Under the pieces are notes generated by a model. The model ran no database searches and had not been told where the DNA came from. It saw only the letters and a list, made by a program, of their open reading frames with translations. From positions 20,524 to 84,523 of IMG/VR virus record IMGVR_UViG_3300013132_000036: 64,000 nt of DNA, one strand, 5' to 3'. This document shows positions 1,604-13,867 of this stretch, in pieces. The DNA comes from a virus. A program made the translations under genes and the position numbers. Positions within the stretch are counted from its first letter, which is position 1. Every line of letters starts with the position of its first letter.

Positions 1604-1909
1604 GTGAAAAAAATTCTATCTTTCAAATTATTTGAAGACGTTTATCTAAAAGACATAAATCCTTTTGATGGAGAAAGAAAATATACTCCTGGCCTCAGAT
1701 TTGCCAACAGGGACGAAGCTATTAAATCAATTAAAAAGATCCAAGAAATGCTAGATCGTAAAGAAATAGAATTAAAGGATGCAATTATAGCTTCTTATAT
1801 AATGTCAAAAAGAGCGGAGTTACATAAATCCCAAAAATCGGGAATCAAAGAGGGAGGACTTGTCTGGAAAGATTATCTGGAACAGCTTAAAAAGAAAGAA
1901 TCAATCTAG
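1604..1909 (+). CDS. Small protein with capsid-targeting-like N-terminus
   Basis: Unrecognised 101-residue protein, one of only three credible plus-strand genes in the window. Its N-terminus, MKKILSFKLFED, matches the signature repeated on neighbouring minus-strand proteins and resembles the T4 internal-protein targeting peptide MKTYQEFIAE. That match supports the GTG start. The rest is helical and charged, ending in a lysine/glutamate-rich tail. It is divergent from the polymerase (52-base gap) and its stop abuts the stop of the next minus-strand gene with no spacer. An AATATATA stretch lies 4 bases before the GTG. Role inferred only: a head-internal or injected protein. Confidence 0.7.
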   Translation: MKKILSFKLFEDVYLKDINPFDGERKYTPGLRFANRDEAIKSIKKIQEMLDRKEIELKDAIIASYIMSKRAELHKSQKSGIKEGGLVWKDYLEQLKKKESI

Positions 1910-2491
1910 TTATTTGTTCGATTTAAAGTAGGAAACAAATTTGTTAACTATATCCATAAAATTGTATTCGTCTGTGGTGACAGGAGTAATTGCCTTAGAT
2001 TTCTTACTCCAATCATTTAAGTATTTATAGAAAACTTTAAATGAGGGAGATAACTGATCTTTCTCTTCACTCTTATTAACTTCCTTAATAGATTTAGTGA
2101 ATCCCATCATAAATCGGTCCACCGCATTCTTATCAATTTTCTCAAGATCGCAGTAATCAAAGAATGAAACTAATATGTCCCACATATTATCTGGGGTAAT
2201 ATCAGGAAATCCCTTTTTTACCCTATCTGATCCTAGTGCAGTTGTTATTTTGCACTCACAAACGGATTTTTTATCTGCTGAATTTTCTTTGCCTGAATAA
2301 AAATCTATCCTAGCCTCTTCCTTAATGCCCTTTTTATTGTATATGATAGAGAACGTTCCGTTTTTACTAAAAACTAAATATCCATTTTCCTCTTTCTTCT
2401 CGAATGATGATTCATTGCTTATTATTGCCCAATTAGTTGTTACCATTTGGAGCTTTTCAAAAAGTTGTTGAAATGTAAATAAATGATTCAT
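1910..2491 (-). CDS. Hypothetical protein with weak capsid-targeting-like N-terminus
   Basis: Unrecognised 193-residue protein. It begins MNHLFTFQQLFEKLQ, a weaker version of the aromatic-x-x-aromatic-x-Glu signature on nearby proteins. The body alternates short hydrophobic strands with charged helices. One segment (ISNESSFEKKEENGYLVFSK) suggests a small beta domain followed by a helical C-terminus. No catalytic motif is obvious. The gene is followed by a convergent plus-strand gene at zero distance. Upstream it is separated from the glycosylase gene by 13 bases that contain AATATATAC. Confidence 0.65.
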   Translation of the reverse strand: MNHLFTFQQLFEKLQMVTTNWAIISNESSFEKKEENGYLVFSKNGTFSIIYNKKGIKEEARIDFYSGKENSADKKSVCECKITTALGSDRVKKGFPDITPDNMWDILVSFFDYCDLEKIDKNAVDRFMMGFTKSIKEVNKSEEKDQLSPSFKVFYKYLNDWSKKSKAITPVTTDEYNFMDIVNKFVSYFKSNK

Positions 2492-2504
2492 GTAGTATAT
2501 ATTA

Positions 2505-2888
2505 CTAAATCGATTCTAAATACATTTTAAGTTTCTTGTCTTTAGGAATAAATGATGTTTCTTTTTTTATAAAGATCCTCCAGGCTTCTCTTCCGTAATC
2601 CCCTATCCCCGGAAACTTAAACGGGTCTCTTACTCCAGATTCCCAGGCATTTGAGAAATTTTTTATCCTTTTCGCTTTTACGTTTTGAAATCCTGTTGTT
2701 TTTATAAAATCAGAAATAGTTAAGTCATCCTCAGCTATTAAAGATTTAGGATTTGGCCATTTTTTAAAGAAGTTTTCTATCAGAGGCCTTACCTGTTTGT
2801 TACTAGTTTGATTAAGTAATATACAACACACTAAAACTTTCCACGGATCATTAGAGTATTCTTCCTGTATTATCTTAATTCTTTGCAC
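2505..2888 (-). CDS. HhH-GPD DNA glycosylase, MBD4-like
   Basis: Predicted base-excision repair glycosylase of the MBD4 C-terminal type, which removes T or U from mismatches with G. Visible family features, in order: NDPWKVLVCCILLNQTS, a K-x-x-x-P linker to FFKKWPNP, TTGFQNVKAKRIKNFS, the helix-hairpin-helix-like PGIGDYGREAWRIF, and the C-terminal PKDKKLKMYL. In the last, the Asp aligns with the catalytic Asp of the PxDHKL motif in MBD4. The protein has 127 residues, about one glycosylase domain with no methyl-CpG-binding domain. The start is GTG, since the next upstream in-frame codons lead to a stop. It could guard against host or phage deamination damage, or act on modified phage bases. 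The substrate is unknown. Confidence 0.75.
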   Translation of the reverse strand: MQRIKIIQEEYSNDPWKVLVCCILLNQTSNKQVRPLIENFFKKWPNPKSLIAEDDLTISDFIKTTGFQNVKAKRIKNFSNAWESGVRDPFKFPGIGDYGREAWRIFIKKETSFIPKDKKLKMYLESI

Positions 2889-2913
2889 ATAGCTAAATTA
2901 AGAAAAATAAATA

Positions 2914-3381
2914 TTACTGATTTGATTTTGATGCTTTTTGAAAAGTTTTAAAGTCCATTAAAGAATTACTTATCGGATTTGGGGTTTCTTTAGATATCTT
3001 TTTCTTCTTTTTTTTAGCTGCTGGAGTACCTACAGTTAAGCTAGGAAATTGATCTCCGGATCCCGTTCTTCCTGGTCCAGGAGGTACAACGTTACCCATA
3101 CCAGGTGTTCCAGCCAAAGATGCCATAGCACCTCCGCTCTCTTCAAGTTCACTAGAGATTTTATCTTTAAATACTCTATACATTCCCCTTTCTCCCTCTA
3201 TAACATATCCTATTACTTCACCTACACTGTTCCTAATAGAATCATCAACCCTACCACTTCTCCCGTCTACAAGAGAAACTCTCTTACCAACTAAAGGATC
3301 CTGATCATATTTAGAAGCCCTGTGTGAATCGTAGCTTCTAATGTTATCTGTGACTCCGCCACATCCGCAATCTTCGCTCAT
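2914..3381 (-). CDS. Small-barrel protein with Gly/Pro linker and Lys-rich C-terminus
   Basis: Unrecognised 155-residue protein. After a Cys/Gly-rich start (SEDCGCGG) a compact beta segment runs from about residue 30 to 78 (LVGKRVSLVDGRSGRV to MYRVFKDKISSEL), looking like an SH3 or KOW-type small barrel. A flexible Gly/Pro stretch follows, then AAKKKKKK. The C-terminus SLMDFKTFQKASKSNQ resembles the N-terminal targeting signature of neighbours, but placed at the other end. It sits one base after the next gene's stop. Structural or head-associated roles are possible, but only from context. Confidence 0.65.
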   Translation of the reverse strand: MSEDCGCGGVTDNIRSYDSHRASKYDQDPLVGKRVSLVDGRSGRVDDSIRNSVGEVIGYVIEGERGMYRVFKDKISSELEESGGAMASLAGTPGMGNVVPPGPGRTGSGDQFPSLTVGTPAAKKKKKKISKETPNPISNSLMDFKTFQKASKSNQ

Positions 3382-3382
3382 A

Positions 3383-3727
3383 TTATTTTTTTATTTTAGT
3401 TATAAATTCTCTATAATCTGAAAGATTTTGCATCTTCCTAGCTTTAGATTTTTTCGGTGTATTCGATTCTGGACTAAGGTGCGGAATAATAGTAGCTATT
3501 CCTTCTTCAATCTCTTCTGGTAATTTTTTATGTTTTGTACTAGCATAATCCTTAAGAGCTTTCTTCTTCATATTATTAGCTATCTCCACTATAGTTTCCC
3601 TATATGCTGAATCTATTTTCCTTGGATTTAATCCCTCTTTTCCGTTCGTGTCCATCCACTTACGTACTCCGTGTGCTTGCCCCATGAGTCTCTGTTGTGT
3701 TCTTGAAACAGATTTCTCGTTTAACAT
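3383..3727 (-). CDS. DUF3008-like small phage protein
   Basis: A protein of 114 residues. SRTQQRLMGQAHGVRKW near the N-terminus and the later LKDYASTKHKKLPEEIE match the pattern of short phage proteins grouped as DUF3008 (SxxQQRLMG at the start, ASTKHKxLP at the end). The function of that family is not established. The C-terminal extension QNLSDYREFITKIKK again looks like the targeting signature found at the N-termini of nearby proteins. The start overlaps the end of the endonuclease-like gene by 7 bases. Confidence 0.65.
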   Translation of the reverse strand: MLNEKSVSRTQQRLMGQAHGVRKWMDTNGKEGLNPRKIDSAYRETIVEIANNMKKKALKDYASTKHKKLPEEIEEGIATIIPHLSPESNTPKKSKARKMQNLSDYREFITKIKK

Positions 3728-4542
3728 AATTTATTTATTATTATTTCCTTAACTTCCTCCGGTCTATTTTCTATTAAGCTACCATCAAATCTAATAACTT
3801 CATACCCCATATCCTTTAGCTTTTTAGTTTGTATTAAGTCTTTTTCTCTCCTCCCTGGTAAATTGTGCCAATAGTCGCCATCAGCAAATATTAATGTTTT
3901 ATTTATTTTAAAATCAGCTATAGATATATTTTTTATAACATGCTGTGAATCGTATTTTATACCAAGATCGATTATTATTTTCTCGATGATTCTTTCTATA
4001 TTAGTGGAAGATTTATTTGAGAATTTTACTATCCCGATACAATGACATTTTCTAGAGCAATATATAGCTGGGGATTTATAATTTTCAGATCTTTCGAAAA
4101 AAGAATCACAAATAACACATTTATGTTGAATCATATTAACCCTGTTTTTACCTTTTAATTCTGAATGTATTCTTTCTAAAGAACATTTCTTATTACAATA
4201 TTTTCTTTTAGAATTTTTTCTAACCTCAAAAGTATTATTACAATTTACACAATTTCTTTCTTCCCTAGGTATCCACATATGATGTAATTCATTCTTTCTA
4301 CCTTTTTTTGATTTTGATTCAATATTACTAGAAGAATCTATAAACTTTTTTAAAAACTCAGGGTCCTCCATCCTTTTTTTACCATTAAATATTCCGTTGC
4401 ACGATCTAGAACAAAAAATTTTACGTATAATATCCCTTCTATTCCGTATATTTAATATAGAGCTACAATTCTTACAATATTTTATATCGTATTTCATTAA
4501 GTTTTTTGGAATTTTGGTTTTTTCTTTATATATTCGTTCCAT
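3721..4542 (-). CDS. Vsr-like homing endonuclease with three zinc-binding units
   Basis: Predicted free-standing mobile endonuclease of 273 residues. The N-terminal two thirds hold three successive Cys clusters of the type CxxC...CxxxC (KYCKNC/IFCSRSC, RNCVNC/KYCNKKC, HKCVIC/IYCSRKC), likely small zinc-binding DNA-contact modules. The C-terminal 75 residues follow the Vsr/DUF559 PD-(D/E)xK plan: ISIADFKI, FADGDYWHN, a basic KDLIQTKKLKDMGYEVIRF, then a terminal helix. The usual acidic residue before the DG is not evident, so catalysis is uncertain. ATG at 4542 is preferred over a TTG two codons earlier. It overlaps the short 57-codon ORF upstream, as expected if it inserted there. Base composition appears even more AT-rich than its neighbours. 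Confidence 0.75.
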   Translation of the reverse strand: MERIYKEKTKIPKNLMKYDIKYCKNCSSILNIRNRRDIIRKIFCSRSCNGIFNGKKRMEDPEFLKKFIDSSSNIESKSKKGRKNELHHMWIPREERNCVNCNNTFEVRKNSKRKYCNKKCSLERIHSELKGKNRVNMIQHKCVICDSFFERSENYKSPAIYCSRKCHCIGIVKFSNKSSTNIERIIEKIIIDLGIKYDSQHVIKNISIADFKINKTLIFADGDYWHNLPGRREKDLIQTKKLKDMGYEVIRFDGSLIENRPEEVKEIIINKLC

Positions 4543-4670
4543 GTCCAAATAAATCTTCTATAGTTATTCTTAACTATATTAAAACCAGTATCTCCTTTAG
4601 GAATCTTTACTGGGGAAACTGGAGGTTCGTATGAACTAGTTTCTGCTGAACTTCTTTTCGTTTTACCCAT
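4497..4670 (-). CDS. 57-residue ORF overlapped by the endonuclease gene
   Basis: Reads MGKTKRSSAETSSYEPP and continues to a basic, aromatic C-terminus NYRRFIWTWNEYIKKKPKFQ. Its last 46 bases lie in another frame inside the endonuclease ORF. It starts 20 bases after the terminator hairpin, in an otherwise empty stretch. Either it is a genuine short gene or the 5' part of a longer gene whose 3' end was replaced when the endonuclease arrived. No family recognised. Confidence 0.45.
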   Translation of the reverse strand: MGKTKRSSAETSSYEPPVSPVKIPKGDTGFNIVKNNYRRFIWTWNEYIKKKPKFQKT

Positions 4671-4690
4671 TTCTTTTATTTACAATGGGA

Positions 4691-4729
4691 CAAAAAAATC
4701 CCGGTAGTATATTATATATCCTACCGGGA
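4691..4729 (-). terminator. Rho-independent terminator (minus strand)
   Basis: A perfect 9-bp inverted repeat (tcccggtag at 4699-4707, ctaccggga at 4721-4729) encloses a 13-base AT loop. Read on the minus strand the stem is followed directly by seven T residues (4698-4692). It lies 18 bases after the stop of the DUF4494-like gene and before the 57-codon ORF. It would end transcripts of the small host-like genes. It is the clearest terminator in the window. Confidence 0.85.
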
Positions 4730-4747
4730 AATTAATAAAGAATTTTC

Positions 4748-4978
4748 TTATCCTCGAATGTGTATCACAGATTCGATTTTAGACTGAGCTACAGAAGTAA
4801 CTTCAAAATCTAAATGTGCAGTTGCATTATCACCAGCTAGATGCTTGTGTACAGTTGTTTCTGCATCAGTTACACTTTCAGCTTCAACTAAGATCTCAGA
4901 CTTAGATGCTTTTGCTTTACCGGTACTTTTAGAAACATCTCCAGTAAAAAAGCTAACTTTACAAATATAATAACTCAT
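4748..4978 (-). CDS. DUF4494-like small protein
   Basis: A 76-residue protein starting MSYYICKVSFFTGDVS, followed by SEILVEAESVTDAETTVHKH and a C-terminal beta strand. This order (Cys-containing first strand, then LVEAESVTDAE, then a final strand) resembles the small DUF4494 family found in Bacteroidota genomes and their phages, function unknown. It is directly downstream of the Hc1-like gene (5-base gap) and directly upstream of the terminator, so the two probably form a short transcription unit. Confidence 0.55.
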   Translation of the reverse strand: MSYYICKVSFFTGDVSKSTGKAKASKSEILVEAESVTDAETTVHKHLAGDNATAHLDFEVTSVAQSKIESVIHIRG

Positions 4979-4983
4979 AAAGA

Positions 4984-5163
4984 TTAAGCTTTAGTGTTTT
5001 TAGTTTCTTGTACATTAACTCTTAAATCCTGAGCTAATTTCTTAAGCTCTTGACAAGCTGTTCTTACACGTGTACCAGCAGACTTGTTTCCTTTTACATA
5101 GAAAGCTTCCGTGTCTTTTTCCATGCTTGCTACTAATTCCTTGATTTTTTCGTAATTTTCCAT
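4984..5163 (-). CDS. Histone H1-like (Hc1-type) DNA-associated protein
   Basis: A 59-residue ORF: MENYEKIKELVASMEKD, FYVKGNKSAGTRVR, then QELKKLAQDLRVNVQETK. The pattern K-GNK-AGTRxR followed by LKxLAQDxRxxVQ is that of the Hc1/H1-like proteins common in Bacteroidota and named after chlamydial histone H1. These proteins bind DNA and are thought to help compact it. Many family members carry a longer lysine/alanine tail, absent here. A phage copy could coat phage DNA or alter the host nucleoid. It has no capsid-targeting-like N-terminus. The upstream 78 bases hold no other gene. Confidence 0.8.
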   Translation of the reverse strand: MENYEKIKELVASMEKDTEAFYVKGNKSAGTRVRTACQELKKLAQDLRVNVQETKNTKA

Positions 5164-5241
5164 TGTTAAATATTTTATTATTCTACTGCAAATCTATTAA
5201 AATGTTTCATTTTTTAAAGGATTTGGTAAAAAAAATATAAT

Positions 5242-5553
5242 TTATTCGTTTACGCTGGAAGCTTTTAGGATTCTTTTACCTAGAGTAGTTAGAGAGAAAT
5301 AGTTTGCTTCTTCCTCTTGGACTTTATATCTGATATATTTTTTTTGTCCTCTAACCCAATTCATGGAAGGCTTCCTTCCTGAAGCATCTTCTGGTACGCT
5401 ATCTAAGAATTCCGTAAGCTCTCTTTTGGTTACTTTCTCCTTCTCTCCTATAAAGGAAAGAACTTTTATTGTTGTGGCAGATGGTTTAGCCCAAGCTATT
5501 GGAATCCTAGATTCATTTATAAATTCTTTATATGAAAGAATATTACTAATCAT
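5242..5553 (-). CDS. Targeting-signature protein with possible winged-helix domain
   Basis: A 103-residue protein that begins MISNILSYKEFINESR, a strong example of the capsid-targeting-like signature with a potential cleavage Glu at position 14. The remainder looks like one winged helix-turn-helix: TIKVLSFIGEKEKVTKREL, then a helix, a wing (KKYIRYKVQEEEANYFS) and LTTLGKRIL. The fold assignment is by eye only. If correct, it would be a DNA-binding protein delivered from the capsid. Its start overlaps the stop of the upstream gene by 8 bases, so the two are probably co-expressed. Confidence 0.65.
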   Translation of the reverse strand: MISNILSYKEFINESRIPIAWAKPSATTIKVLSFIGEKEKVTKRELTEFLDSVPEDASGRKPSMNWVRGQKKYIRYKVQEEEANYFSLTTLGKRILKASSVNE

Positions 5554-6082
5554 GATCCCTTCTAGTATAAATTAAAGTTTCCTCATCAGGTCCTTCTTGA
5601 ACGCTCCATTTTTCATAGCTCCATTCTCCCATTAATGTTTCTACTCTGTCTTTATACTCTGAAAAATCAATATTTAGATTCATAGTAATCTCATCATAGA
5701 TTTTAGAGACCTTAGGATTATTTTGTAAATAGTCTTTTATTGCTTCACTCAGGATTCGGTAAAATCTCATGAACTCTGATCTGGTAAGATTGAAATCGTC
5801 ATCCTCTCTAGATTTGTAATCAGTATCATTTACTAAATAGTCATCAAGTATTCCAATTTTAATTGGCTCCACTGATAAAACACAATAACTATTTTCTGCT
5901 TCATCTATAGAAGATCCCCTGGAAAGTTTACCTATATTAATAATAAATCCTAGATTTTCCTCCTCGCCCTCTATTTTAAAGTAGTACTTGGAAACCTTCC
6001 CGTCTTTCTTTTTAGCAAAGAAGTCTCTTCCGAAACCATCTTCTTCCATTAAAAAATTCTCAAATAATTTTATATGCTTCAT
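5546..6082 (-). CDS. Hypothetical protein with capsid-targeting-like N-terminus
   Basis: Unrecognised 178-residue protein. It opens MKHIKLFENFLMEED, with the expected aromatic spacing and Glu-Glu where a gp21-type protease could cut. The body has a beta-rich first half (SKYYFKIEGEEENLGFIINI) and helical stretches (SEFMRFYRILSEAIKDYL) ending in a charged tail. Two bases separate it from the next upstream gene. No enzymatic motif is visible. Confidence 0.65.
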   Translation of the reverse strand: MKHIKLFENFLMEEDGFGRDFFAKKKDGKVSKYYFKIEGEEENLGFIINIGKLSRGSSIDEAENSYCVLSVEPIKIGILDDYLVNDTDYKSREDDDFNLTRSEFMRFYRILSEAIKDYLQNNPKVSKIYDEITMNLNIDFSEYKDRVETLMGEWSYEKWSVQEGPDEETLIYTRRDHD

Positions 6083-6084
6083 AA

Positions 6085-6357
6085 TTAACTATCTCCTTTT
6101 CTTGGAAAAATTGCGGATGTGTTAGGAATATATCCTTTTTTCTTTCTCTTGAATATTTCACCTCTAACAATGTTTCCATAGTATTTATCTATAAGGTTCC
6201 ATCCTTCCTCTAACTCTTGTAAATCTACATCATCTAATTTAGAAAACTCCTCCTTAACTAGATTTATCCTTTCCATAGCCTCTTCTAAAAGTTTTTTACT
6301 ATTAGAAAGGTCATACTTATAGGTATGACCCTCTTTTATTTGGCTATATTTTTTCAT
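6085..6357 (-). CDS. Small helical hypothetical protein
   Basis: A 90-residue protein with a predicted helical hairpin (SKKLLEEAMERINLVKEEF and DLQELEEGWNLIDKYY) and a basic C-terminus. The first residues MKKYSQIKEG are a short, possibly degenerate version of the targeting signature: a single aromatic and a Glu at position 9. It sits 1 base after the stop of the MoxR gene, so it is almost certainly translated from the same message. No family recognised. Confidence 0.6.
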   Translation of the reverse strand: MKKYSQIKEGHTYKYDLSNSKKLLEEAMERINLVKEEFSKLDDVDLQELEEGWNLIDKYYGNIVRGEIFKRKKKGYIPNTSAIFPRKGDS

Positions 6358-6358
6358 T

Positions 6359-7963
6359 CTAAAATGTTATTCCTAGTTTAGCTCCCCATTTGTCTGCTAA
6401 AGGACCAAGACAAGAGTACATTGCAGGGTCTGTTTGTAATTCTGGGTGTAAATTAAAGAATGTTGCAAGAGCTGCTGATCCTTCCTCTTCAAGATCTGTT
6501 CTCTCTAACCATTTAGCATAGTTACAAACTTCAGTAGGGGTCAGTTTAATTTCTTTACTTTTTCTAATAACTGCTCCAAATAAAGCGTGAGTGTAATCCG
6601 GTTTATTTCCTTTGTCTGCAGGGATTGGTGCTTTTGCCGGATCAGTATATGGTAAAATAAGTTCTCTAACCGGAATGTCCTTAGCAACCTTATAAAAATT
6701 TAAGAAAGATACAGCAGCATCATTACCTACGTTTTTAGAAAATTCCTTCTTTATAACATCCTCTGGGATATTAGTAATTCCTTTTGCTTCTAAATTTCTA
6801 ATTACTCTTGATAAAGAGTTAGAGGCATCAACCCAAGCCCTAGGGGTAGGGTATTTAGTTTTCTTAGTGGCAGGATCTAAATTATGGAAGAAGTCAGGCT
6901 GGAATTCTAAGAAATCTAAAAGTTCGGGTAAAACAACATTTTTATATCTGCTTCTTTCCACATAAGATCTAAATCCTTTTATGGTAGGCACGAAGTTAAC
7001 TGCTTGAAATCTGTCTCTAAGTGCAGTTCCTAATTCTTTAACAGATTTATCATCCTGCTTTCTGTTACCTGCTGCTACAATATACCATCTTTCTGGAATA
7101 TTATAATTGTTTCCAATTCTTCTTGATTGTGCAAGTTTCATAAATATTTTAATAACCTCCTCTGGCATACGATTTAACTCATCAATAAATATTATTCCAC
7201 CTTTACCATTCCTACCATTATCATAAGGAAGAATATCTATGTTGATATTTGATCTTGTTACTCCCGCACCTGCGTAATTTCTCTCTGGATCTGGCTCTTT
7301 CATAGTTACTACACTAGGTACACCAGCAAAATCAACAGGTTCAGCATTTTCTCCATCTACATTGACTAAAGAAAGCTTATGCCCATATAATTCTTTTCCT
7401 AATTCGTCACAAACCTGTGCTACTATCTGTGTTTTACCAATCCCAGGAGCTCCGTAAATAAAAATAGGCTTAACATCTAGAATTCCCCTGTACATGTCAT
7501 CTAATTCGTCTTCAGTTGCCCCGGCTTTCTTAGCAGCATCCATTTCATCAGCAATTCTGAAGATCTCTCTCATGTTTGTTTTGATGTCCTCCTTTATTTC
7601 CGGTTCGGAGTAATTAGGTACGTCGTCTGAAATAGGATATTCAAGGGGAACTGCATCTTCCCATAAAAAACTTTCACCAAGGGTCTCTGGTTTTTCAAGA
7701 TTACCCATGTTATAGTATTCTGTTCCTTTATAGAAATTATTAACCTGACTTAAAATAGATTCACTCTTAGAATCGTCAAATAAAGCAACCCTCGGGGTTC
7801 CTGTTTTAGGGCCAGAAGATATCAATTTAACTAAACCCGACTTAACCGCATTGTATAGGCCTTTTGCCCATGAAGATATTTTCGATCCTAAATTGGATAA
7901 AAATCCCTCACTCATATATGATTCATTTACGAATTCATCGAAATTATAAATTCTTTTAGCCAT
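6359..7963 (-). CDS. MoxR-family AAA+ ATPase with capsid-targeting-like N-terminus
   Basis: A 534-residue AAA+ ATPase. The core shows Walker A GAPGIGKT (171-178), Walker B IIFIDE (257-262), sensor-1 asparagine in VAAGN (N300) and an arginine-finger segment ALRDRF (314-319). This is the layout of MoxR and CobS-like ATPases that act with VWA partners to remodel or load metal onto target proteins. The N-terminus MAKRIYNFDEFVNESYM carries the targeting signature. An amphipathic stretch (about 20-50) and a non-conserved linker precede the ATPase. It is directly followed by two small genes and preceded by the VWA and metallopeptidase genes, the usual MoxR neighbourhood. A GATATATA element lies 22 bases upstream. 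The substrate is unknown. Confidence 0.85.
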   Translation of the reverse strand: MAKRIYNFDEFVNESYMSEGFLSNLGSKISSWAKGLYNAVKSGLVKLISSGPKTGTPRVALFDDSKSESILSQVNNFYKGTEYYNMGNLEKPETLGESFLWEDAVPLEYPISDDVPNYSEPEIKEDIKTNMREIFRIADEMDAAKKAGATEDELDDMYRGILDVKPIFIYGAPGIGKTQIVAQVCDELGKELYGHKLSLVNVDGENAEPVDFAGVPSVVTMKEPDPERNYAGAGVTRSNINIDILPYDNGRNGKGGIIFIDELNRMPEEVIKIFMKLAQSRRIGNNYNIPERWYIVAAGNRKQDDKSVKELGTALRDRFQAVNFVPTIKGFRSYVERSRYKNVVLPELLDFLEFQPDFFHNLDPATKKTKYPTPRAWVDASNSLSRVIRNLEAKGITNIPEDVIKKEFSKNVGNDAAVSFLNFYKVAKDIPVRELILPYTDPAKAPIPADKGNKPDYTHALFGAVIRKSKEIKLTPTEVCNYAKWLERTDLEEEGSAALATFFNLHPELQTDPAMYSCLGPLADKWGAKLGITF

Positions 7964-7984
7964 TTTTATTCTATTATTTACCTT

Positions 7985-7993
7985 GTATATATC
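7985..7993 (-). promoter_or_regulatory. Candidate late-promoter element GATATATAC
   Basis: Minus-strand GATATATAC in the 34-base gap before the MoxR gene, 22 bases from its ATG. Close variants sit 14-20 bases upstream of four other genes. T4-like phages use TATAAATA as the late -10 box, so this may be the equivalent. No -35 signal is evident. Inferred from recurrence only. Confidence 0.4.
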
Positions 7994-7997
7994 TTTT

Positions 7998-9005
7998 TTA
8001 TATTCTTTTTACGTTCTTGTTGGCAAGAACAATGTCTATTCTTTCACCAAAAGGTTGGGAGTTAGGATAAGGCTCATCATTGAAGGTTAGGAATACCCAA
8101 ATACATCGGTCACCATATTCAGAAATGTCATAGTCATTTTCAGAAGGAAAACCTGCCTCACCGTCAGTAAAGTATATAAAAACTGTGGGTGTTTCACCTT
8201 CCTGATCTATCATGTTTTTTTGAACCCATTTGAATGGGGGCCAAAAATAAGTTCCTCCTCCTCCCGCTATTTTATTATAATCCGGAAGATCTCCTGGCTC
8301 TAATATATCTGGTTCATAAACTTGTGTGTCACAATACAATATAACTGTTTTATTTGGGTTATACTCTTGAGTTATATTCGTAACTTCTCCTAGAAATTGT
8401 TCTATCATTTCTCTTGTAATAGATCCAGAGGTATCTATTGCAACAACTACACTCTGAAAATCTTCCTTATATCTCTTATAGCCATATTGAGCTTTTCCTG
8501 ATCCCAGAAATCTTCTAGAGGGTAATGTATATTTGGATTTAGATATAGCTTGATCTATATACTTTGAAAGTTCTTCTTTCCAATCTATAACAGGTCTTTT
8601 AGTTTTTTGAATTGCTCTCTTTAGCTGAGCCGGGATATTTCCTGCATTAGTACCTGCAATTCTAGTTATATCTTCCCATTCTTCGGCTAATGTTTCACCA
8701 TTAAGTCCGCTGTCTCCTCCGAGATCCCCAAGTTCCCCAGGTCTAAGAATTTCCCCTGGATTATACCCATCCTTGACTTTAGGTCCTCCTCCTCCTGTTT
8801 CGGTCCTTTTAAATTCAGATTCTTCTTCCTTTATTTTACCATCTTTGTCCCTCTCCGGAACTTCCCTATCTGGAACGTCATCTCCCCACTCATCTATATT
8901 TTCTGGCTTAGGTATAGGAAAATCGGGGGGAAAATCTCCGGTTCCGCCTCCGCCGCCTCCTTCTCTAATTTCTTGTATTCTTACGCCTGTTATTTTTGCT
9001 TTCAT
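7998..9005 (-). CDS. VWA-domain protein (MoxR partner)
   Basis: A 335-residue protein with a C-terminal von Willebrand factor A domain (about 184-330). The MIDAS metal site is intact: DTSGS at 191-195, a threonine in GGGGTYF (T252) and the later Asp in YFTDG (D281). The N-terminal half is disordered: a run of six glycines (16-21), proline/acidic stretches, another GGGG, then a helical linker. Such VWA proteins commonly pair with MoxR ATPases. In DUF2201 proteins of bacteria the VWA domain is fused to a metallopeptidase domain, here a separate adjacent gene. No capsid-targeting signature is present, unlike its two flanking genes. Confidence 0.85.
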   Translation of the reverse strand: MKAKITGVRIQEIREGGGGGGTGDFPPDFPIPKPENIDEWGDDVPDREVPERDKDGKIKEEESEFKRTETGGGGPKVKDGYNPGEILRPGELGDLGGDSGLNGETLAEEWEDITRIAGTNAGNIPAQLKRAIQKTKRPVIDWKEELSKYIDQAISKSKYTLPSRRFLGSGKAQYGYKRYKEDFQSVVVAIDTSGSITREMIEQFLGEVTNITQEYNPNKTVILYCDTQVYEPDILEPGDLPDYNKIAGGGGTYFWPPFKWVQKNMIDQEGETPTVFIYFTDGEAGFPSENDYDISEYGDRCIWVFLTFNDEPYPNSQPFGERIDIVLANKNVKRI

Positions 9006-9039
9006 ATATTAAATCCTTTTTTTCATAGAACGTATTAAA

Positions 9040-9900
9040 TTAGAAGTCTAATTCTTTTTCTATATCATCTCCTAATATATTTTCACCCTTAGCTTTTCTC
9101 TGTAGATATTCTTTAACCTTATTTTTCGGTATAGGATCATACTCAAGCTCACCTGATGTCTCGTCTATAGACTTAACTATACCATAAGAATCATTATCTT
9201 TATCGTATATAATGTCACCAACTACAGGATCCTTTGGCGGTGGTGGAGGTGGTGGAGGTGTGGTCGGAGGATATCCTTCCTCAGGAACATATCCATTAGA
9301 AAGAAGCTTCTCATATATCCATTCTGCACTCCTGTTTACGAATTCATAATCATAAGGAACATGGCCACATCCAGGATATAATGATCCCTCTACCATTTTT
9401 CCTATCCCTCCTTTAGAAACAGGTTTAGGCTTATCGGAATTTATCGTGCTTGTATCTACGGGTGTTAACAACTGATTAAGTGCATAATCTGCTGCAACGT
9501 TCCATACACCTGCTTTAGTTTTATCCTTAGGACATCTTAAAAAGTGTACCAATGTATTGTGTAAAACCTCATGTGCAATAACCCATATTATCTCCTCATC
9601 TGTACGACCTAGAACAAAATCTGGATCATAGTGTATACTAACACCATCAGTTGCCATTGTTTTATATTCAAGATTTCTGTTTTCTCTGATAATCAATCGA
9701 GATAACATCGATGCAAAAAATGGATATGATCCGTTTAGTAAAAATACACACGCCCTCATTTTTTTCAGAGCTGCGGGATTGTGTGGTGTTTTGTTTCTTT
9801 CGTCTAAATAGATTGCTTCATTTAAACTGTTATACTCTGAATAACCAAATCTAGCATATTCAAAAATTGCAAAATCACTGAAGGATAATATTCTTTTCAT
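9040..9900 (-). CDS. DUF2201-type putative zinc metallopeptidase, signature-tagged
   Basis: A 286-residue predicted metallopeptidase. The zincin motif HEVLH is at 110-114, followed by WNVAADYALN (133-142), a combination typical of the DUF2201 N-terminal peptidase domain. A proline-rich hinge (eight consecutive prolines) leads to a small barrel-like C-terminal segment (VGDIIYDKDNDSYGIVKSI). The start MKRILSFSDFAIFEY bears the capsid-targeting-like signature. It lies immediately upstream of the VWA and MoxR genes, together forming a split version of the bacterial MoxR plus peptidase-VWA pair. Proteolytic activity is not demonstrated for the family in general, so a metal-dependent role other than cleavage is possible. 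Confidence 0.8.
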   Translation of the reverse strand: MKRILSFSDFAIFEYARFGYSEYNSLNEAIYLDERNKTPHNPAALKKMRACVFLLNGSYPFFASMLSRLIIRENRNLEYKTMATDGVSIHYDPDFVLGRTDEEIIWVIAHEVLHNTLVHFLRCPKDKTKAGVWNVAADYALNQLLTPVDTSTINSDKPKPVSKGGIGKMVEGSLYPGCGHVPYDYEFVNRSAEWIYEKLLSNGYVPEEGYPPTTPPPPPPPPKDPVVGDIIYDKDNDSYGIVKSIDETSGELEYDPIPKNKVKEYLQRKAKGENILGDDIEKELDF

Positions 9901-9917
9901 TCCTTTGTTTAATTACA

Positions 9918-11927
9918 CTATATATCCTCTTCAGAACCGTTTATTTGTTTGGTAAATTCATTGAAAAGAACTGCTACTGATTTAGGAACTTTACTTTTAA
10001 ATTGTTGAAAATCTCCGTCTTTTATGTAAGTCCTAATATCATTATTATTTGACCATTGAGGAGTTTTATATATTTCTATATCTCCTCCCTCTAAGTCGTA
10101 TTTATTTCTTACCCATTCTCTCTGTAGAATCATGTTTTCAAAATCTCTTTCCCCTATACATACTGACGCAGGGTTAGCATATTTAACAACTGCATTTAGA
10201 GCGTCTTCTAAAAGATTGGACGGTATTATCTGATACCCTGCAAAAAGCTTATTATTCTCCGATGTTAGAGATCCTATTGATTTTCTTATTAAATCTTCAG
10301 AGAATGGATATTTTGATCCAGGCTCACTTCCTGGATGAACCACACAAAGGAAAACAGGTAAATTATTTTCCTTCTTTAATCTGGTACACATTTTTAAATG
10401 CCCATTATTAAAAGGCTGGAATTTCCCGATTACTATATTTACTTTCTGGTTGTTCTCGTTTAATATCTTAATCTTTCTTTTCTCTTTATGTGTAGTTACT
10501 ACTTTTTTAAAATCTTTAAATGAAAAAAATTCGGATGCGTCTTCGCTTTTTTTCTCCTCCTCAGTTATAACCGTAGGCGTTTCTGATTCATTAAGAGAAA
10601 CAGGATCTTCAGAAGAAGATCCCTCTATTATTTCTTCCAGCTCATCTATTTCATCTTCTTCTTCGCTCATTGTTGGATTAAATTTGCTACCTGCTTTTTT
10701 AAACCAAACAAAGCTAGGAACTCCTAAAGATTCCTCTACTAAATCTTTTTTCTTAGCGTTTATATAGCCAGCGATTTCTTCAACTAGCATGTTAAACTGT
10801 TGTATTAGACCTTCTGTGAAAAATCCATGTGGTTTTCTTTTAAGCTTCCTGAAGGAATTAAGAATCATCTGGAGAATGTCTATATAAACTTCATCATCTT
10901 CTATAGACTTTAACACCTCTTCATCGATTATTAAATCCTTGTTTATTTCAAATCCCTCTGATTTTAAATATTCAGGTTTTTGAAAATCAGCGCCTACGTA
11001 TTTTTCTCCCTCCTCATATACAAATCTCTTAAATACATTAAAAACAAAACTGATGTATCTTTCTTCCGGATCGTTTCCTTCAGCTGTGAAATTTTCTACA
11101 CCAGTCTCTAATATGAAATTCATTACATCTATAAGACATAAAGAATAAACATCGCTAGGGAAGTATGAAGTCTGGGTAACTTTTCTACTTTTGTTTATCT
11201 CATGGAAAACTGGATCAACCATTTTTGCTAAAACTGTTTCCTCCTTACCATCTTCATCTTCGAATCTGAAAACAAGAGAATCTATTTCCCCCTGTAGATC
11301 CTTACCAAGGGTTGTTCTTTCTACGTTTTTGTTTAATATAGAAATTAAATAGTTACTAAAGCTAGCAGTTTTAAATTTACTTTTAAGATCCATTAAAGGA
11401 GTTGAAAGGAAATCCATTATCGCTATCTTCTGATCCCTATTAAGTTTACCTTGGAATATAATAGGGGATCTCTCTACTTCTAGCTTATCTGCCCACTCGT
11501 CTAGCTCGTTCTTATCCTGTAAATTTTTAATAACGTCGCCGAATTCATCTCTAACAACAACGTGTGTTAAAACAAGATGATTTTTTGGTACCCTGTCGTA
11601 TTCGATCCTAACAGGTTTTTTATTGGGAAAGTAAACCATTCCAAATCTCCACCCTTTAGGAAGCTGATCAGTGATTTCAAGTGACAATGATTCTATATAA
11701 ATTATAGGCTTTTCGTAATATTTCATTAATATCCTATCAACCTTAGTTATAGGGTTATCTTGATCTTTTTTATAAAAAGATATATTATCTCCAGTAAAAT
11801 CCCTCTCGAAAGAAAAAGAAGGTCCATCTAAATTCTCAGTTACTGTTAAATTTTTATTGAAAAGGCTTTCAATGAAGGACTTTCCTTTTTTCTCGTATAT
11901 GTCCGTTAAGTATTTTATTCCAGCCAT
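9918..11927 (-). CDS. Ligase-like domain fused to NMN adenylyltransferase-like domain
   Basis: A 669-residue two-part protein. The N-terminus resembles the nucleotidyltransferase core of RNA/DNA ligases (LTVTENLDGPSFSF, residues 27-40). The lysine expected in the KxDG nucleotide-binding motif is asparagine (N32), so adenylation is doubtful. A long helical region and an acidic linker (about 425-470) follow. From about 496 there is an adenylyltransferase fold: IVIGKFQPFNNGH (the GxFxPFxxGH nucleotide motif), VCIGERDFEN and NNNDIRTYI. This resembles NadM/NMNAT-type enzymes of NAD synthesis. An internal FFSFKDFKKV resembles the targeting signature. ATG at 11927 overlaps the preceding stop (TAATG) and is preferred over an earlier TTG. 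Confidence 0.7.
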   Translation of the reverse strand: MAGIKYLTDIYEKKGKSFIESLFNKNLTVTENLDGPSFSFERDFTGDNISFYKKDQDNPITKVDRILMKYYEKPIIYIESLSLEITDQLPKGWRFGMVYFPNKKPVRIEYDRVPKNHLVLTHVVVRDEFGDVIKNLQDKNELDEWADKLEVERSPIIFQGKLNRDQKIAIMDFLSTPLMDLKSKFKTASFSNYLISILNKNVERTTLGKDLQGEIDSLVFRFEDEDGKEETVLAKMVDPVFHEINKSRKVTQTSYFPSDVYSLCLIDVMNFILETGVENFTAEGNDPEERYISFVFNVFKRFVYEEGEKYVGADFQKPEYLKSEGFEINKDLIIDEEVLKSIEDDEVYIDILQMILNSFRKLKRKPHGFFTEGLIQQFNMLVEEIAGYINAKKKDLVEESLGVPSFVWFKKAGSKFNPTMSEEEDEIDELEEIIEGSSSEDPVSLNESETPTVITEEEKKSEDASEFFSFKDFKKVVTTHKEKRKIKILNENNQKVNIVIGKFQPFNNGHLKMCTRLKKENNLPVFLCVVHPGSEPGSKYPFSEDLIRKSIGSLTSENNKLFAGYQIIPSNLLEDALNAVVKYANPASVCIGERDFENMILQREWVRNKYDLEGGDIEIYKTPQWSNNNDIRTYIKDGDFQQFKSKVPKSVAVLFNEFTKQINGSEEDI

Positions 11928-12370
11928 TAGTTTAAACAATTAATAATTTTTCTACCTTTTAAATTACAAATTAAAAGATGTCCTATCCTTAAATTTTTCT
12001 TAGGTACAAAATCAGAACTTATTATATATTCCTCTAAAAATTTCATGATGCTGACTACTAAAATCCTAGATCTATAGCTTACTTCCGGATTATTATTTAA
12101 GTCATTTAATATGTCTATATAGTCTTCTAAGGAGCTTTTTTTATCCGGCTTAATCAATGCCTTAAAAATATCCTTTTCAATCGTGTATACAAGCTCTTTT
12201 TCTATAGTAATGCTCCAATTTCCTGTGACGTCTTCTGTTAATATTCCCCTTTCTCCTAAAAACGTCATAAATGAAAAATCGTCGCCATCTGGAGAGACCG
12301 AATGAATCTTACATCCCGTATAGTGCTGTAAAACTGGATAAAGTGCGGTACTTTGTATATGGCTAAGCAT
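11927..12370 (-). CDS. Hypothetical protein
   Basis: Unrecognised 147-residue protein starting MLSHIQSTALYPVLQHY. It contains a small mixed alpha/beta region (SFMTFLGERGILTEDVTG, WSITIEKELVYTIEKD) and a C-terminal helical part. There is no targeting signature, transmembrane segment or catalytic motif. Its stop overlaps the start of the ligase-like/NMNAT gene by one base (TAATG), so the two are translationally coupled. It starts 6 bases after the acidic-tail gene. A partner or chaperone for one of these is plausible but unproven. Confidence 0.6.
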   Translation of the reverse strand: MLSHIQSTALYPVLQHYTGCKIHSVSPDGDDFSFMTFLGERGILTEDVTGNWSITIEKELVYTIEKDIFKALIKPDKKSSLEDYIDILNDLNNNPEVSYRSRILVVSIMKFLEEYIISSDFVPKKNLRIGHLLICNLKGRKIINCLN

Positions 12371-12376
12371 TCTTTA

Positions 12377-12535
12377 TTATTCGTCTTCGTCTTCTTCGTC
12401 CTCGTCGTATTCTTCTTCGTCCTCGTCGTCTTCGATTTCGTCTTCCACTTCATCATCATCTCCTTGAGGAATAGTAGCAGAATACTCGTCATCTTCATCC
12501 TCATCCTCATCTTCATCCTCATCTTCCTCGTAGCT
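12377..12535 (-). repeat. GAN-codon microsatellite encoding polyacidic tail
   Basis: About 160 bases of near-continuous GAA/GAT/GAG/GAC codons, seen on the plus strand as cttcgtc/ctcgtc runs. The stretch includes the alternating EDEDEDEDEDEDD segment and a second block ending EEYDEDEEDEDE. It is low-complexity coding sequence, likely to vary in length by slippage, and it produces long spurious open frames on the other strand. Confidence 0.8.
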
Positions 12536-13258
12536 GCCTTCAGTTTCTTCCGGATGACCGTTATGCTCTTCTCCATAGGTATATCCAGAATTTGGATCTT
12601 CGTGTTCTTCCTCCTCTCCCATTTCTTCTTCCTCTTCTATCTCGTTCCAAACAGGTTGCATTTTACAAGTTAGATATTTGCAATAAACATCTCCAGTTTT
12701 TCTGTCTTCGATTGTTACCATTCTAGGCCCGTTTATCTCGTCTAGTTCTATACTTGCAGCAAACATTTTAGACTCTTCTAAATTAGCAAAAGGTCCGAAA
12801 GTGTAAGCTCCTAGATCAGGAGTAGTTTTTACTTTAAGTGGAGAGGACATCATATCTTTACTGTATCTAATCATTTCTCCCCCTTTATCAAAATAAAAAT
12901 CGTCACACATAGTTACGAAATGGTAGTTAGGATCCCCACCATCGCCTACCATCTGCTTAGCCATTTCCATGGTCCTAGACTCATTCATTTTCTTTTTGGC
13001 GAAATCAAATTTAGATCCAGTTGCTTTAGGTTTTATACCCTTCTCTTTTTTATAATCACTCCAAGCTTTAGATAAGCCATCCATGTACTTTTCTTGAGCT
13101 TTTCTATCACCTTGGAATTTTTTATCAAAAGGTCCAGAAACACCATGCTTCTTGTGGTACTTTTTAGAGAACTCAAGGTACATATTTCTTTCATTGACTA
13201 CCTGACTTTCTTTTAGTTCTTGCTTCTTTTTTTCTACTGCTGAAGAGAATTTTTTCAT
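12377..13258 (-). CDS. Bipolar protein: Lys-rich N-terminus, Asp/Glu-rich tail
   Basis: An unrecognised 293-residue protein with extreme charge separation. The first 110 residues are rich in Lys with repeated helical segments (FSSAVEKKKQELKESQ, YLEFSKKYHKKHG, AWSDYKKEKGIKPK). The middle (about 115-205) looks globular (HFVTMCDDFYFDKGGEMIRY, GPFANLEESKMFAASIEL). The last 85 residues are mostly Asp and Glu. The start MKKFSSAVEKKKQELKE fits the targeting signature only weakly. Acidic proteins of this kind occur in phage head cores, and polyacidic tails can mimic DNA. Either role would suit its place among signature-tagged genes. Confidence 0.65.
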   Translation of the reverse strand: MKKFSSAVEKKKQELKESQVVNERNMYLEFSKKYHKKHGVSGPFDKKFQGDRKAQEKYMDGLSKAWSDYKKEKGIKPKATGSKFDFAKKKMNESRTMEMAKQMVGDGGDPNYHFVTMCDDFYFDKGGEMIRYSKDMMSSPLKVKTTPDLGAYTFGPFANLEESKMFAASIELDEINGPRMVTIEDRKTGDVYCKYLTCKMQPVWNEIEEEEEMGEEEEHEDPNSGYTYGEEHNGHPEETEGSYEEDEDEDEDEDEDDEYSATIPQGDDDEVEDEIEDDEDEEEYDEDEEDEDE

Positions 13259-13261
13259 TTT

Positions 13262-13867
13262 TTATACATTATTTGTTTGGAATATAGGCTGGGCTGGGTT
13301 TGCCTGATGTTGATAATAGAGATTCACTCTATTTCTAGCTATATCATCTAATACAGGAACTTGTCCCATTACTACGTCACCTCTATTATAAAGATCCCCT
13401 ATGTGATCTGCTAATTGATCCTCCGTTTTTATACTAGGAAGTTCGTTCTGTGCAAAGTCCTCATTTGTATGTCTCATGAATTCTATATCTACTTTCTCAT
13501 CACTAGGAGATTTTTTAGTGAATTCATATTTAGTAGGACCAAATACTCTTTTTAATACATTAGGTACAACAGATAAAGCGCCAAAAAGAATTTCAAATCC
13601 TGTATCAGGTCCCCCGTGGGTTCTCATTGATCTATTTTGTCTTACTTGTTGCTTTCCTATTTCTGCCGCTCTGTTTATTCTATTTTCCATTTTTTGGAAA
13701 AAGTCACGAGTTTTCTGTAGAACAGTAGGATTGCTGCCTAATTCATAATGATTTTTAGCTCTATCTTCATAAGTAGAAGCATTGTTTCCTAAATGCCTCC
13801 TAAAGAAAAGATCTTCACTAGACTCATTAATTTGGCAAAAATCCTTGAAGTTTTTAATTTTATACAT
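13262..13867 (-). CDS. Hypothetical protein with strong capsid-targeting-like N-terminus
   Basis: Unrecognised 201-residue protein beginning MYKIKNFKDFCQINESS, one of the best copies of the signature: aromatics at the right spacing and NE-S where cleavage would occur. The remainder is basic and helical (KTRDFFQKMENRINRAAEI), with a hydrophobic patch (GFEILFGALSVVPNVLKRVF) that could be membrane-active or a core helix, then a polar C-terminus. ATG at 13867 is preferred; a TTG one codon earlier adds nothing. GGATATATAG lies 20 bases upstream. Confidence 0.65.
   Translation of the reverse strand: MYKIKNFKDFCQINESSEDLFFRRHLGNNASTYEDRAKNHYELGSNPTVLQKTRDFFQKMENRINRAAEIGKQQVRQNRSMRTHGGPDTGFEILFGALSVVPNVLKRVFGPTKYEFTKKSPSDEKVDIEFMRHTNEDFAQNELPSIKTEDQLADHIGDLYNRGDVVMGQVPVLDDIARNRVNLYYQHQANPAQPIFQTNNV

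What the first reader, a model, noticed from the sequence alone, without database searches (positions are those of the whole stretch)
1604..13867. A shared capsid-targeting-like N-terminal signature on many unrelated proteins
Seen in sequence: six proteins start with the same pattern of a short basic/hydrophobic lead, two aromatics and a Glu: MKKILSFKLFED (1604), MISNILSYKEFINES (5553), MKHIKLFENFLMEED (6082), MAKRIYNFDEFVNES (7963), MKRILSFSDFAIFEY (9900) and MYKIKNFKDFCQINES (13867). Three more (2491, 6357, 13258) have weaker versions. The rest of each protein is unrelated. Known: T4 internal proteins begin MKTYQEFIAE, a capsid-targeting peptide removed by the gp21 protease at a Glu. No replication or tail protein here has the signature, and the tagged genes all lie between 1.6 and 13.9 kb. 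Inference: this block encodes head-internal proteins delivered with the DNA.
Basis: partly seen in the sequence, partly recalled or inferred. Interest (0 to 1): 0.85.

Follow-up and report, generated by a model that had tools for sequence, protein, structure and literature searches.

The report
Cargo tags for a phage head
Many unrelated proteins of this large aquatic phage group start with the same short tag, which matches the tag that phage T4 uses to load proteins into its head, so these phages probably carry dozens of proteins inside the particle along with their DNA.

Summary
The window lies in an 84.5-kb virus record. A motif trained on this record alone recurs in 28 of 260 non-homologous proteins of a 206-kb relative (shuffles: mean 2.6, maximum 7). 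Tagged bodies are almost all unrelated.

The tag has the register mapped for T4's capsid-targeting sequence: aromatics at residues 4 and 7, then [ILV]xE. The same filter finds only IPII and IPIII among 137 T4 ORFs. No head gene was found in this record. A sister phage (86% identical ATPase) has an S77 prohead protease fused to its scaffold, and a gp23-type capsid protein with LNE|S, the tag's presumed cleavage sequence. The scaffold carries 15 copies of the same heptad, one every 14 residues; all 61 scaffold proteins compared have 5-15.

Best reading: T4-type capsid targeting, on 10-17% of called proteins. Cargo includes two MoxR-like ATPases, a metallopeptidase-like protein and an adenylate kinase. 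Virion presence, cleavage and injection are inferred. Untested idea: the tag copies the scaffold's own repeat.

The parts
1604..1909 (+). tagged protein, 101 aa (MKKILSFKLFED), no family
   Evidence: matrix 15.6; same gene and tag in G001, G002, G003, G004; no Pfam/PHROG hit
1910..2491 (-). tagged protein, 193 aa (MNHLFTFQQLFEKLQ), no family
   Evidence: matrix 14.1; tag kept in G001, G002, G003, G004; no family
2914..3381 (-). untagged at the N-terminus; C-terminus ends NSLMDFKTFQKASKSNQ, a possible C-terminal copy without the cleavage Glu
   Evidence: C-terminal pattern kept in G001-G004; function inferred only
3383..3727 (-). untagged at the N-terminus; C-terminus ends NLSDYREFITKIKK, a possible C-terminal copy without the cleavage Glu
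   Evidence: kept in G001, G002, G003; no homologue printed for G004
5242..5553 (-). tagged protein, 103 aa (MISNILSYKEFINES), strict T4 register
   Evidence: no family
5546..6082 (-). tagged protein, 178 aa (MKHIKLFENFLMEED), strict T4 register
   Evidence: matrix 25.3; alignment of 5 orthologues; AlphaFold2 model unusable, pLDDT 43.5
6359..7963 (-). tagged MoxR-like AAA+ ATPase, 534 aa (MAKRIYNFDEFVNES), strict T4 register
   Evidence: AAA_5 1.9e-10, phrog_1297 1.8e-51
7998..9005 (-). untagged VWA half of a split DUF2201 protein, between the two tagged genes
   Evidence: DUF2201 2.1e-18
9040..9900 (-). tagged metallopeptidase-like half of DUF2201, 286 aa (MKRILSFSDFAIFEY, then SLNEA)
   Evidence: DUF2201_N 3.3e-16, matrix 19.4; does not fit the strict T4 register
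13262..13867 (-). tagged protein, 201 aa (MYKIKNFKDFCQINES), no family
   Evidence: matrix 17.9; five orthologues aligned; does not fit the strict register; AlphaFold2 model unusable, pLDDT 46.8
6085..6357 (-). REJECTED weak case (MKKYSQIKEG)
   Evidence: below threshold
12377..13258 (-). REJECTED weak case (MKKFSSAVEKKKQ); very acidic C-terminus
   Evidence: below threshold; no family

Best explanation
The shared N-terminus is a T4-type capsid-targeting sequence. During head assembly the two large hydrophobic residues three apart (positions 4 and 7 in T4) bind the internal scaffold, so each tagged protein is built into the prohead core. The S77 prohead protease then cuts after the Glu of [LIVF]xE|[SAG], freeing the cargo inside the head, where it is packed with the DNA and probably enters the next host. 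Shown here by sequence: the motif, its register, its independence from the protein bodies, the matching sequence in the relatives' capsid protein, the protease, and the heptad array in the scaffold. Inferred: scaffold binding, cleavage, presence in virions, injection.
For: T4 mapping, PMC9026906 section 2.6 read: targeting mainly at residues 4 and 7, processing at 8 and 10. With that register, [FY]xx[FY][ILVMF]xE in the first 22 residues: T4 60-160 kb gives IPII and IPIII only, 2 of 137 ORFs; G000 7 of 69 (shuffle mean 0.39, max 3 of 300), G001 11 of 159 (0.65, 4), G003 15 of 315 (1.66, 6), G004 7 of 90 (0.41, 4), LR756500 6 of 97 (0.48, 3). Held-out matrix test 28 of 260 against 2.64 (max 7). 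49 tagged bodies in G003 with two related pairs. [LIVFMC]xE[SAG] in residues 6-32 of 28 of 49 tagged against 6.9 shuffled (max 15), and in 31 of 266 untagged. G001: S77 protease, gp23 capsid protein 5e-38, tagged neighbours including a highly acidic one. Capsid-protein N-terminal regions contain LNE|S: Glu in 65 of 68, Leu at P3 in 62, Asn at P2 in 65, Ser at P1' in 64. PAU: 4 of 5 'internal capsid protein' notes fall on leaders MK[STG][LI]xxLYE, as does the noted scaffold; 28 of 305 ORFs carry [LIVFM][YF]E near the start against 4.0 shuffled, max 10. PAU capsid protein: 585 to 520 residues, marked as N-terminally sequenced (PMC5646251 Table 1 passage), which falls one residue from the ALME|N site.
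Against: No virion proteomics was found for these uncultivated phages. Neither protease nor capsid gene was found in the record itself (whose controls rang nowhere); both are read from a sister genome. Three of the seven tagged window genes fit the strict T4 register; the others fit only the looser matrix. The register filter misses T4 IPI and Alt. G002 gives only 2 of 61 (0.38 shuffled, max 3). Relatives with gp23-type capsids, MaF61 (0 of 188), PTm1 (1 of 114, 100 of 225 kb), Lak-B5 (0 of 110, 100 of 544 kb), lack this form, and PAU has 0 of 290. PAU's two 'internal capsid vertex' proteins (gp1, gp10) have no leader. Among families near the capsid gene in 108 loci, none with three or more members is at least half strict-register tagged, and one representative per family gives 4 of 150 (shuffled 0.36, max 2); with the looser matrix 7 of 23 families of eight or more members are tagged in 23-86% and 16 in 0-10%. 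The PAU site is off by one residue against the published length. An adenylate kinase is an unexpected cargo.
Confidence: 0.84

Rival explanations
MoxR, metallopeptidase and VWA would be virion-assembly chaperones.
For: A MoxR-vWA pair with a metallopeptidase domain was proposed for virion assembly in group 2.2 jumbo phages (PMC7824862 passages). In T4 the core proteins gp22 and gp67 are themselves cut to pieces in the head (PMC9026906 passages).
Against: Adenylate kinase and many proteins without any family carry the tag, which fits cargo at least as well as assembly factors. The VWA half of the set is untagged.
Confidence: 0.3
2. The shared sequence is only a protease recognition site; it carries no targeting information.
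For: The tag often ends in the same [LIV]NE|S as the capsid protein, and scaffold repeats also contain LAE.
Against: The capsid protein's site has Ser and His, not aromatics, at the two positions where tags and scaffold repeats have Phe/Tyr (consensus), so the aromatics are probably not needed for cutting (cutting itself is inferred). In T4 they are the targeting residues.
Confidence: 0.1
3. An address for another place in the infected cell (membrane, replication site).
For: Tagged genes lie among replication genes in this record.
Against: Nine proteins with Pfam hits to replication, repair or chaperone families show none at threshold; tags also sit beside capsid genes; the register is that of T4 IPII and IPIII.
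Confidence: 0.04
4. Chance or biased N-terminal composition.
Against: Composition-preserving shuffles, internal segments and C-termini fall far below the N-terminal counts.
Confidence: 0.01

Closest known systems
T4 internal proteins IPI-IPIII and Alt with the capsid-targeting sequence, and gp21 protease
   Same: Short N-terminal leader on unrelated bodies; hydrophobic residues at positions 4 and 7; [LIV]xE motif; S77 protease and gp23-type capsid in the sister genome
   Different: 6 to 49 tagged proteins per incomplete record at matrix threshold 9 against three IPs in T4 and at least ten reported in related phages (PMC12373910 passages); protease fused to scaffold; scaffold carries a heptad array; cargo includes large enzymes
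Phage PAU internal capsid proteins
   Same: gp23-type capsid of the same family (Sphingomonas phages among the matches counted); leader MK[STG][LI]xxLYE on proteins noted as internal capsid proteins; about 20 leaders of this form by eye
   Different: The leader is LYE, not FxxF; no strict heptad tag (0 of 290); protease and scaffold are separate genes in the annotation
phiKZ / 201phi2-1 / SPN3US processed head proteins
   Same: Many head proteins trimmed after Glu by a gp21-like protease; at least 19, at least 19 and 9 (PMC10052503 passages)
   Different: S/A-x-E motif (PMC9026906 passages), in SPN3US mostly long propeptides; here a short leader and [LIV]xE
Freshwater Bacteroidetes phages with bS21 (PMC9723584)
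   Different: No tag is mentioned in the passages seen; whether these are the same group was not tested
MoxR-vWA-metallopeptidase pair of group 2.2 jumbo phages (PMC7824862)
   Same: Same domain set
   Different: Here the ATPase and the metallopeptidase half carry a head tag; the DUF2201 protein is split in two genes in this group

Membership tests
T4-type capsid-targeting sequence | same short N-terminal leader on otherwise unrelated proteins | tested here: met
   49 tagged G003 bodies, two related pairs at E 1e-3; held-out enrichment
T4-type capsid-targeting sequence | targeting residues at positions 4 and 7, processing residues at 8 and 10 | tested here: met
   register regex 7 of 69 in the record, 2 of 137 in T4 (IPII, IPIII); met by 7 of the record's 12 tags, the other 5 fit only looser patterns
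T4-type capsid-targeting sequence | L/I-x-E cleavage site at the end of the leader | tested here: met
   28 of 49 tagged against 6.9 shuffled; 21 of 49 lack the pattern; cleavage itself not observed
T4-type capsid-targeting sequence | phage has a gp21-type (S77) protease and a gp23-type capsid protein | tested here: inconclusive
   present in sister G001; no match in the incomplete record itself
T4-type capsid-targeting sequence | leader is necessary and sufficient for packaging | not testable with these tools
   needs fusions in a cultured phage
T4-type internal (injected) protein | present in the virion in processed form and ejected into the host | not testable with these tools
   no virion data; depositor notes on PAU only
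S77 prohead protease (G001 protein) | S77 domain, gene upstream of gp23 | tested here: met
   PF03420 3.2e-10 over residues 25-140, next gene gp23 5e-38
phiKZ-type processing | S/A-x-E cleavage motif | tested here: not met
   presumed capsid site P3 is Leu 62, Met 3, Ile 3 of 68
MoxR-vWA-metallopeptidase chaperone set | adjacent MoxR-like AAA+, VWA and metallopeptidase domains | tested here: met
   window 6359-9900; phylogeny not tested

The most novel reading that the evidence does not exclude
The cargo tag is a single copy of the scaffold's own building block. In this group the protease-scaffold contains a rod of 5-15 heptads [YF]xx[YF][LIV]xE repeated every 14 residues, each one also a possible protease site. 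Cargo enters the core by packing a matching helix onto that rod, and one round of proteolysis dissolves the scaffold and frees dozens of proteins at once. The head would be an addressable container that takes any protein given the tag and delivers an AAA+/metallopeptidase machine and a nucleotide kinase with the DNA.
Probability: 0.35. Interest if true: 0.87.

Novelty: new variant of a known kind. Interest (0 to 1): 0.74.

Why it matters
Most proteins of large phages have no known role. A tag that can be read from sequence sorts out a likely virion-borne set, 49 by threshold in the 206-kb relative (some of them false positives). The listings of ten paper searches (open-licence papers only, best matches seen) showed no paper on such tags in this phage group, and none on MoxR-type ATPases or adenylate kinase as head cargo; these were listings, not full readings. 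In T4, Ip1, Ip2 and Ip3 block type IV restriction enzymes (PMC12373910 passages), so this set is a first place to look for anti-defence proteins of phages of Bacteroidota. The heptad array offers a testable answer to how a capsid-targeting sequence is recognised: the T4 review passages and section seen here name affinity for the core and co-purification with gp22, but no contact on the scaffold side.

Tried and rejected
Protease and capsid searches in the record itself: no match, and the controls rang nowhere, so absence is not shown by them; the record is a fragment, and G001 gave both hits. Two of the three weak tags (6357, 13258): rejected. The idea that the tagged genes form a head block: rejected, as they are interleaved with replication genes. 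De novo motif search was convincing only in G003 (log-likelihood 320 against 166 shuffled and 242 for C-termini); in G001 (195 against 160 and 185) and G000 (173 against 154 and 156) it did not separate well. AlphaFold2 models of two tagged window proteins were unusable (mean pLDDT 43.5 and 46.8), so no fold search was run. A PDB sequence search of the tagged 506-aa protein found nothing. An ADP-ribosyltransferase role for L001 13915-14397 was suspected by eye from a PLYRGSS stretch; no family supports it, so it is not claimed. A regex for an internal motif copy in the 9918-11939 orthologues was badly formed and says nothing. Scaffold mimicry in T4 itself: gp22 has no strict heptad and one relaxed match, a point against a general rule.

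The matrix was built from 40 seed peptides taken mainly from G003 and partly from this record, so its counts for those genomes and their orthologues are not independent; one search is the held-out version. One search used a peptide from the repeat region among its patterns; one search found loci by the capsid protein alone and returned 80 of 196. Proteins are ORFs of at least 60 residues from a simple caller of my own, not curated genes.
Full report
What the window is. The window is bases 20524-84523 of an 84,523-base IMG/VR virus record. Pfam finds DNA polymerase B, gp32, a UvsW-like (ResIII) helicase, HhH-GPD and PhoH in the window, and two topoisomerase subunits, ribonucleotide reductase and DnaJ to its left; a primase and a long tail and baseplate block are named by eye. 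No head gene was found (the controls of these searches rang nowhere). A MoxR-like protein search in viral contigs gave five relatives: G001 (148 kb, 86% identity), G002 (73 kb), G003 (207 kb), G004 (95 kb) and a 17-kb piece.

The observation. The six N-termini are real. Five further tagged genes lie left of the window in the same record. With a matrix of 11 columns, threshold 9, tagged N-termini are 11 of 69 in the record (0.20 expected from shuffles), 20 of 159 in G001 (0.60), 49 of 315 in G003 (1.7), 10 of 90 in G004 (0.40), 6 of 61 in G002 (0.35); one more in the record is found by regex. Because seeds came from these genomes, a held-out test was made: a matrix from 11 tags of this record, applied to the 260 of 315 G003 proteins without a homologue in the record, scores 28 at threshold 8, against a shuffle mean of 2.64 and maximum of 7 in 200; C-termini 2; internal segments 10 of 1020. 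The tagged bodies are almost all unrelated: among 49, the two MoxR paralogues and one other pair match.

The register. The T4 review states that in the ten-residue IPIII leader targeting lies mainly at residues 4 and 7 and processing at residues 8 and 10 (PMC9026906, section 2.6 read). In the T4 record IPII and IPIII begin MKTYQEFIAE; IPI begins MKTFKEFTST and Alt MELITELFDE. Written as [FY]xx[FY][ILVMF]xE and sought in the first 22 residues, this register finds IPII and IPIII, and nothing else, among 137 T4 ORFs over 100 kb, missing IPI and Alt; it finds 7 of 69, 11 of 159, 15 of 315, 7 of 90 and 2 of 61 in G000, G001, G003, G004 and G002. Typical tags are FDEFVNE|S, FNDFVNE|S, YKEFINE|S, FADFLNE|S. 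LR756500, a 462-kb uncultured phage with a capsid protein 42% identical to G001's, has 6 of 97 in the 100 kb examined, with different wording (YKDFLIE, YENFIFE). PAU (0 of 290), MaF61 (0 of 188), PTm1 (1 of 114) and Lak-B5 (0 of 110, read with TAG as Gln) do not use this form; the last two were seen in part.

Protease and capsid. G001 has an S77 protease (3.2e-10) in a 696-residue protein, followed by a gp23 capsid protein (5e-38). In 68 distinct capsid proteins of the group an LNE|S sequence stands near the N-terminus: Glu 65, Leu 62, Asn 65, Ser 64, the same letters as many tags. That it is the maturation site is inferred. It lacks the two aromatics, which speaks for a separation of targeting and cutting. 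For PAU, the published table gives 520 of 585 residues, marked as N-terminally sequenced (PMC5646251, Table 1 passage); the sequence there reads ALME|NY, and a cut after that Glu would leave 521. Depositor notes in the PAU record name five internal capsid proteins; four begin MK[STG][LI]xxLYE, as does the noted scaffold protein; the fifth (gp70) and two 'internal capsid vertex' proteins (gp1, gp10) do not. What the notes rest on is not stated.

The scaffold array. The scaffold half of the G001 protein holds 15 copies of the heptad (YSEYLAE and variants), each exactly 14 residues after the last; shuffling that protein gives a mean of 0.12 and a maximum of 2, and no other G001 protein has more than 2. 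All 61 distinct protease-scaffold proteins of at least 450 residues recovered from 108 loci have 5-15 copies. Over 774 units, positions that the search did not fix are also conserved: Ile at 2 in 661, Ala at 9 in 683, Leu or Val at 12 in 730. Among same-residue positions of the G001 units, 363 of 912 codon pairs differ, so the array is not just a recent DNA duplication, although five central units are nearly identical in DNA. LR756500 has two strict heptads and a degenerate series around them. The T4 leader and the common unit share the same numbering: Tyr at 4, aromatic at 7, aliphatic at 8, Ala at 9, Glu at 10. This suggests, but does not show, that the cargo tag copies the scaffold's unit. 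Against a general rule, T4 gp22 has no strict heptad.

The cargo. Tagged proteins with a recognisable domain: two MoxR-like AAA+ ATPases, the metallopeptidase-like half of DUF2201, and an adenylate kinase (7.3e-32) in this record. Of the tagged G003 proteins 20 were scanned: an OmpA-domain protein, a CHAP-domain protein at its cut-off and a P-loop kinase-like protein stand out, one more has a sub-threshold hit to a fusellovirus VP2 family, and ten of ten in the second set have no family above its cut-off. In LR756500 the DUF2201 protein is one gene and is tagged, in different wording, while its MoxR neighbour is not clearly tagged. The authors of PMC7824862 proposed the MoxR-vWA-metallopeptidase set for virion assembly (passages); a head tag fits both that and delivery.

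Genes around the capsid gene. In G001 several neighbours are tagged, among them one with a long Glu/Asp tail, recalling the acidic T4 core protein gp67 (recalled). Over 108 loci, looser tags appear in 86% of 28, 75% of 8, 64% of 14 and 52% of 23 members of four neighbour families, in 33%, 30% and 23% of three more, in 0-10% of the other 16 families of eight or more, and in none of the capsid (68) or protease-scaffold (79) families. Under the strict register no family of three or more is half tagged. The tag therefore comes and goes within families.

Verdict. What is new is the scale, the lineage, the enzymes among the cargo, and the scaffold array in the same register. Virion presence, cleavage and injection remain to be shown.

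Noticed in passing
window 2914-3381 and 3383-3727: Two adjacent small proteins end in a motif like the tag (DFKTFQ, DYREFI) without the cleavage Glu, conserved in relatives; T4 Alt is also processed at its C-terminus.
   Followed up: partly
window 7998-9900: The DUF2201 metallopeptidase-VWA protein is split into two genes in this group and fused in LR756500 (L043 20318-21793).
   Followed up: partly
L001 938-2437 and window 6359-7963: Two MoxR-like paralogues in one record, both tagged; the G003 pair is 35% identical.
   Followed up: partly
L001 15693-16352: Adenylate kinase with an N-terminal extension that carries the tag.
   Followed up: partly
L001 5881-7401: Tagged 506-aa protein with GPWSAGCQVF, which by eye (recalled) resembles an L,D-transpeptidase active site; only phrog_3000 (unknown function) matches.
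   Followed up: partly
window 9918-11939: C-terminal part matches a cytidyltransferase PHROG (2.4e-5); the rest has no family.
   Followed up: no
window 50681-51808: S1 RNA-binding domains (1.5e-23) in a protein within the tail region, with a marginal tag score of 7.9 that recurs in G001 and G002.
   Followed up: no
G003:C1:132290-132757: Tagged protein MIQHYEEFIAEKKNPCWPGYKQIGTKKKNGRMVPNCVKES with a Cys-containing motif seen (recalled) in other T4-like phages.
   Followed up: no
L001 6-335: Low-complexity run of VSWL repeats near the end of the record.
   Followed up: no
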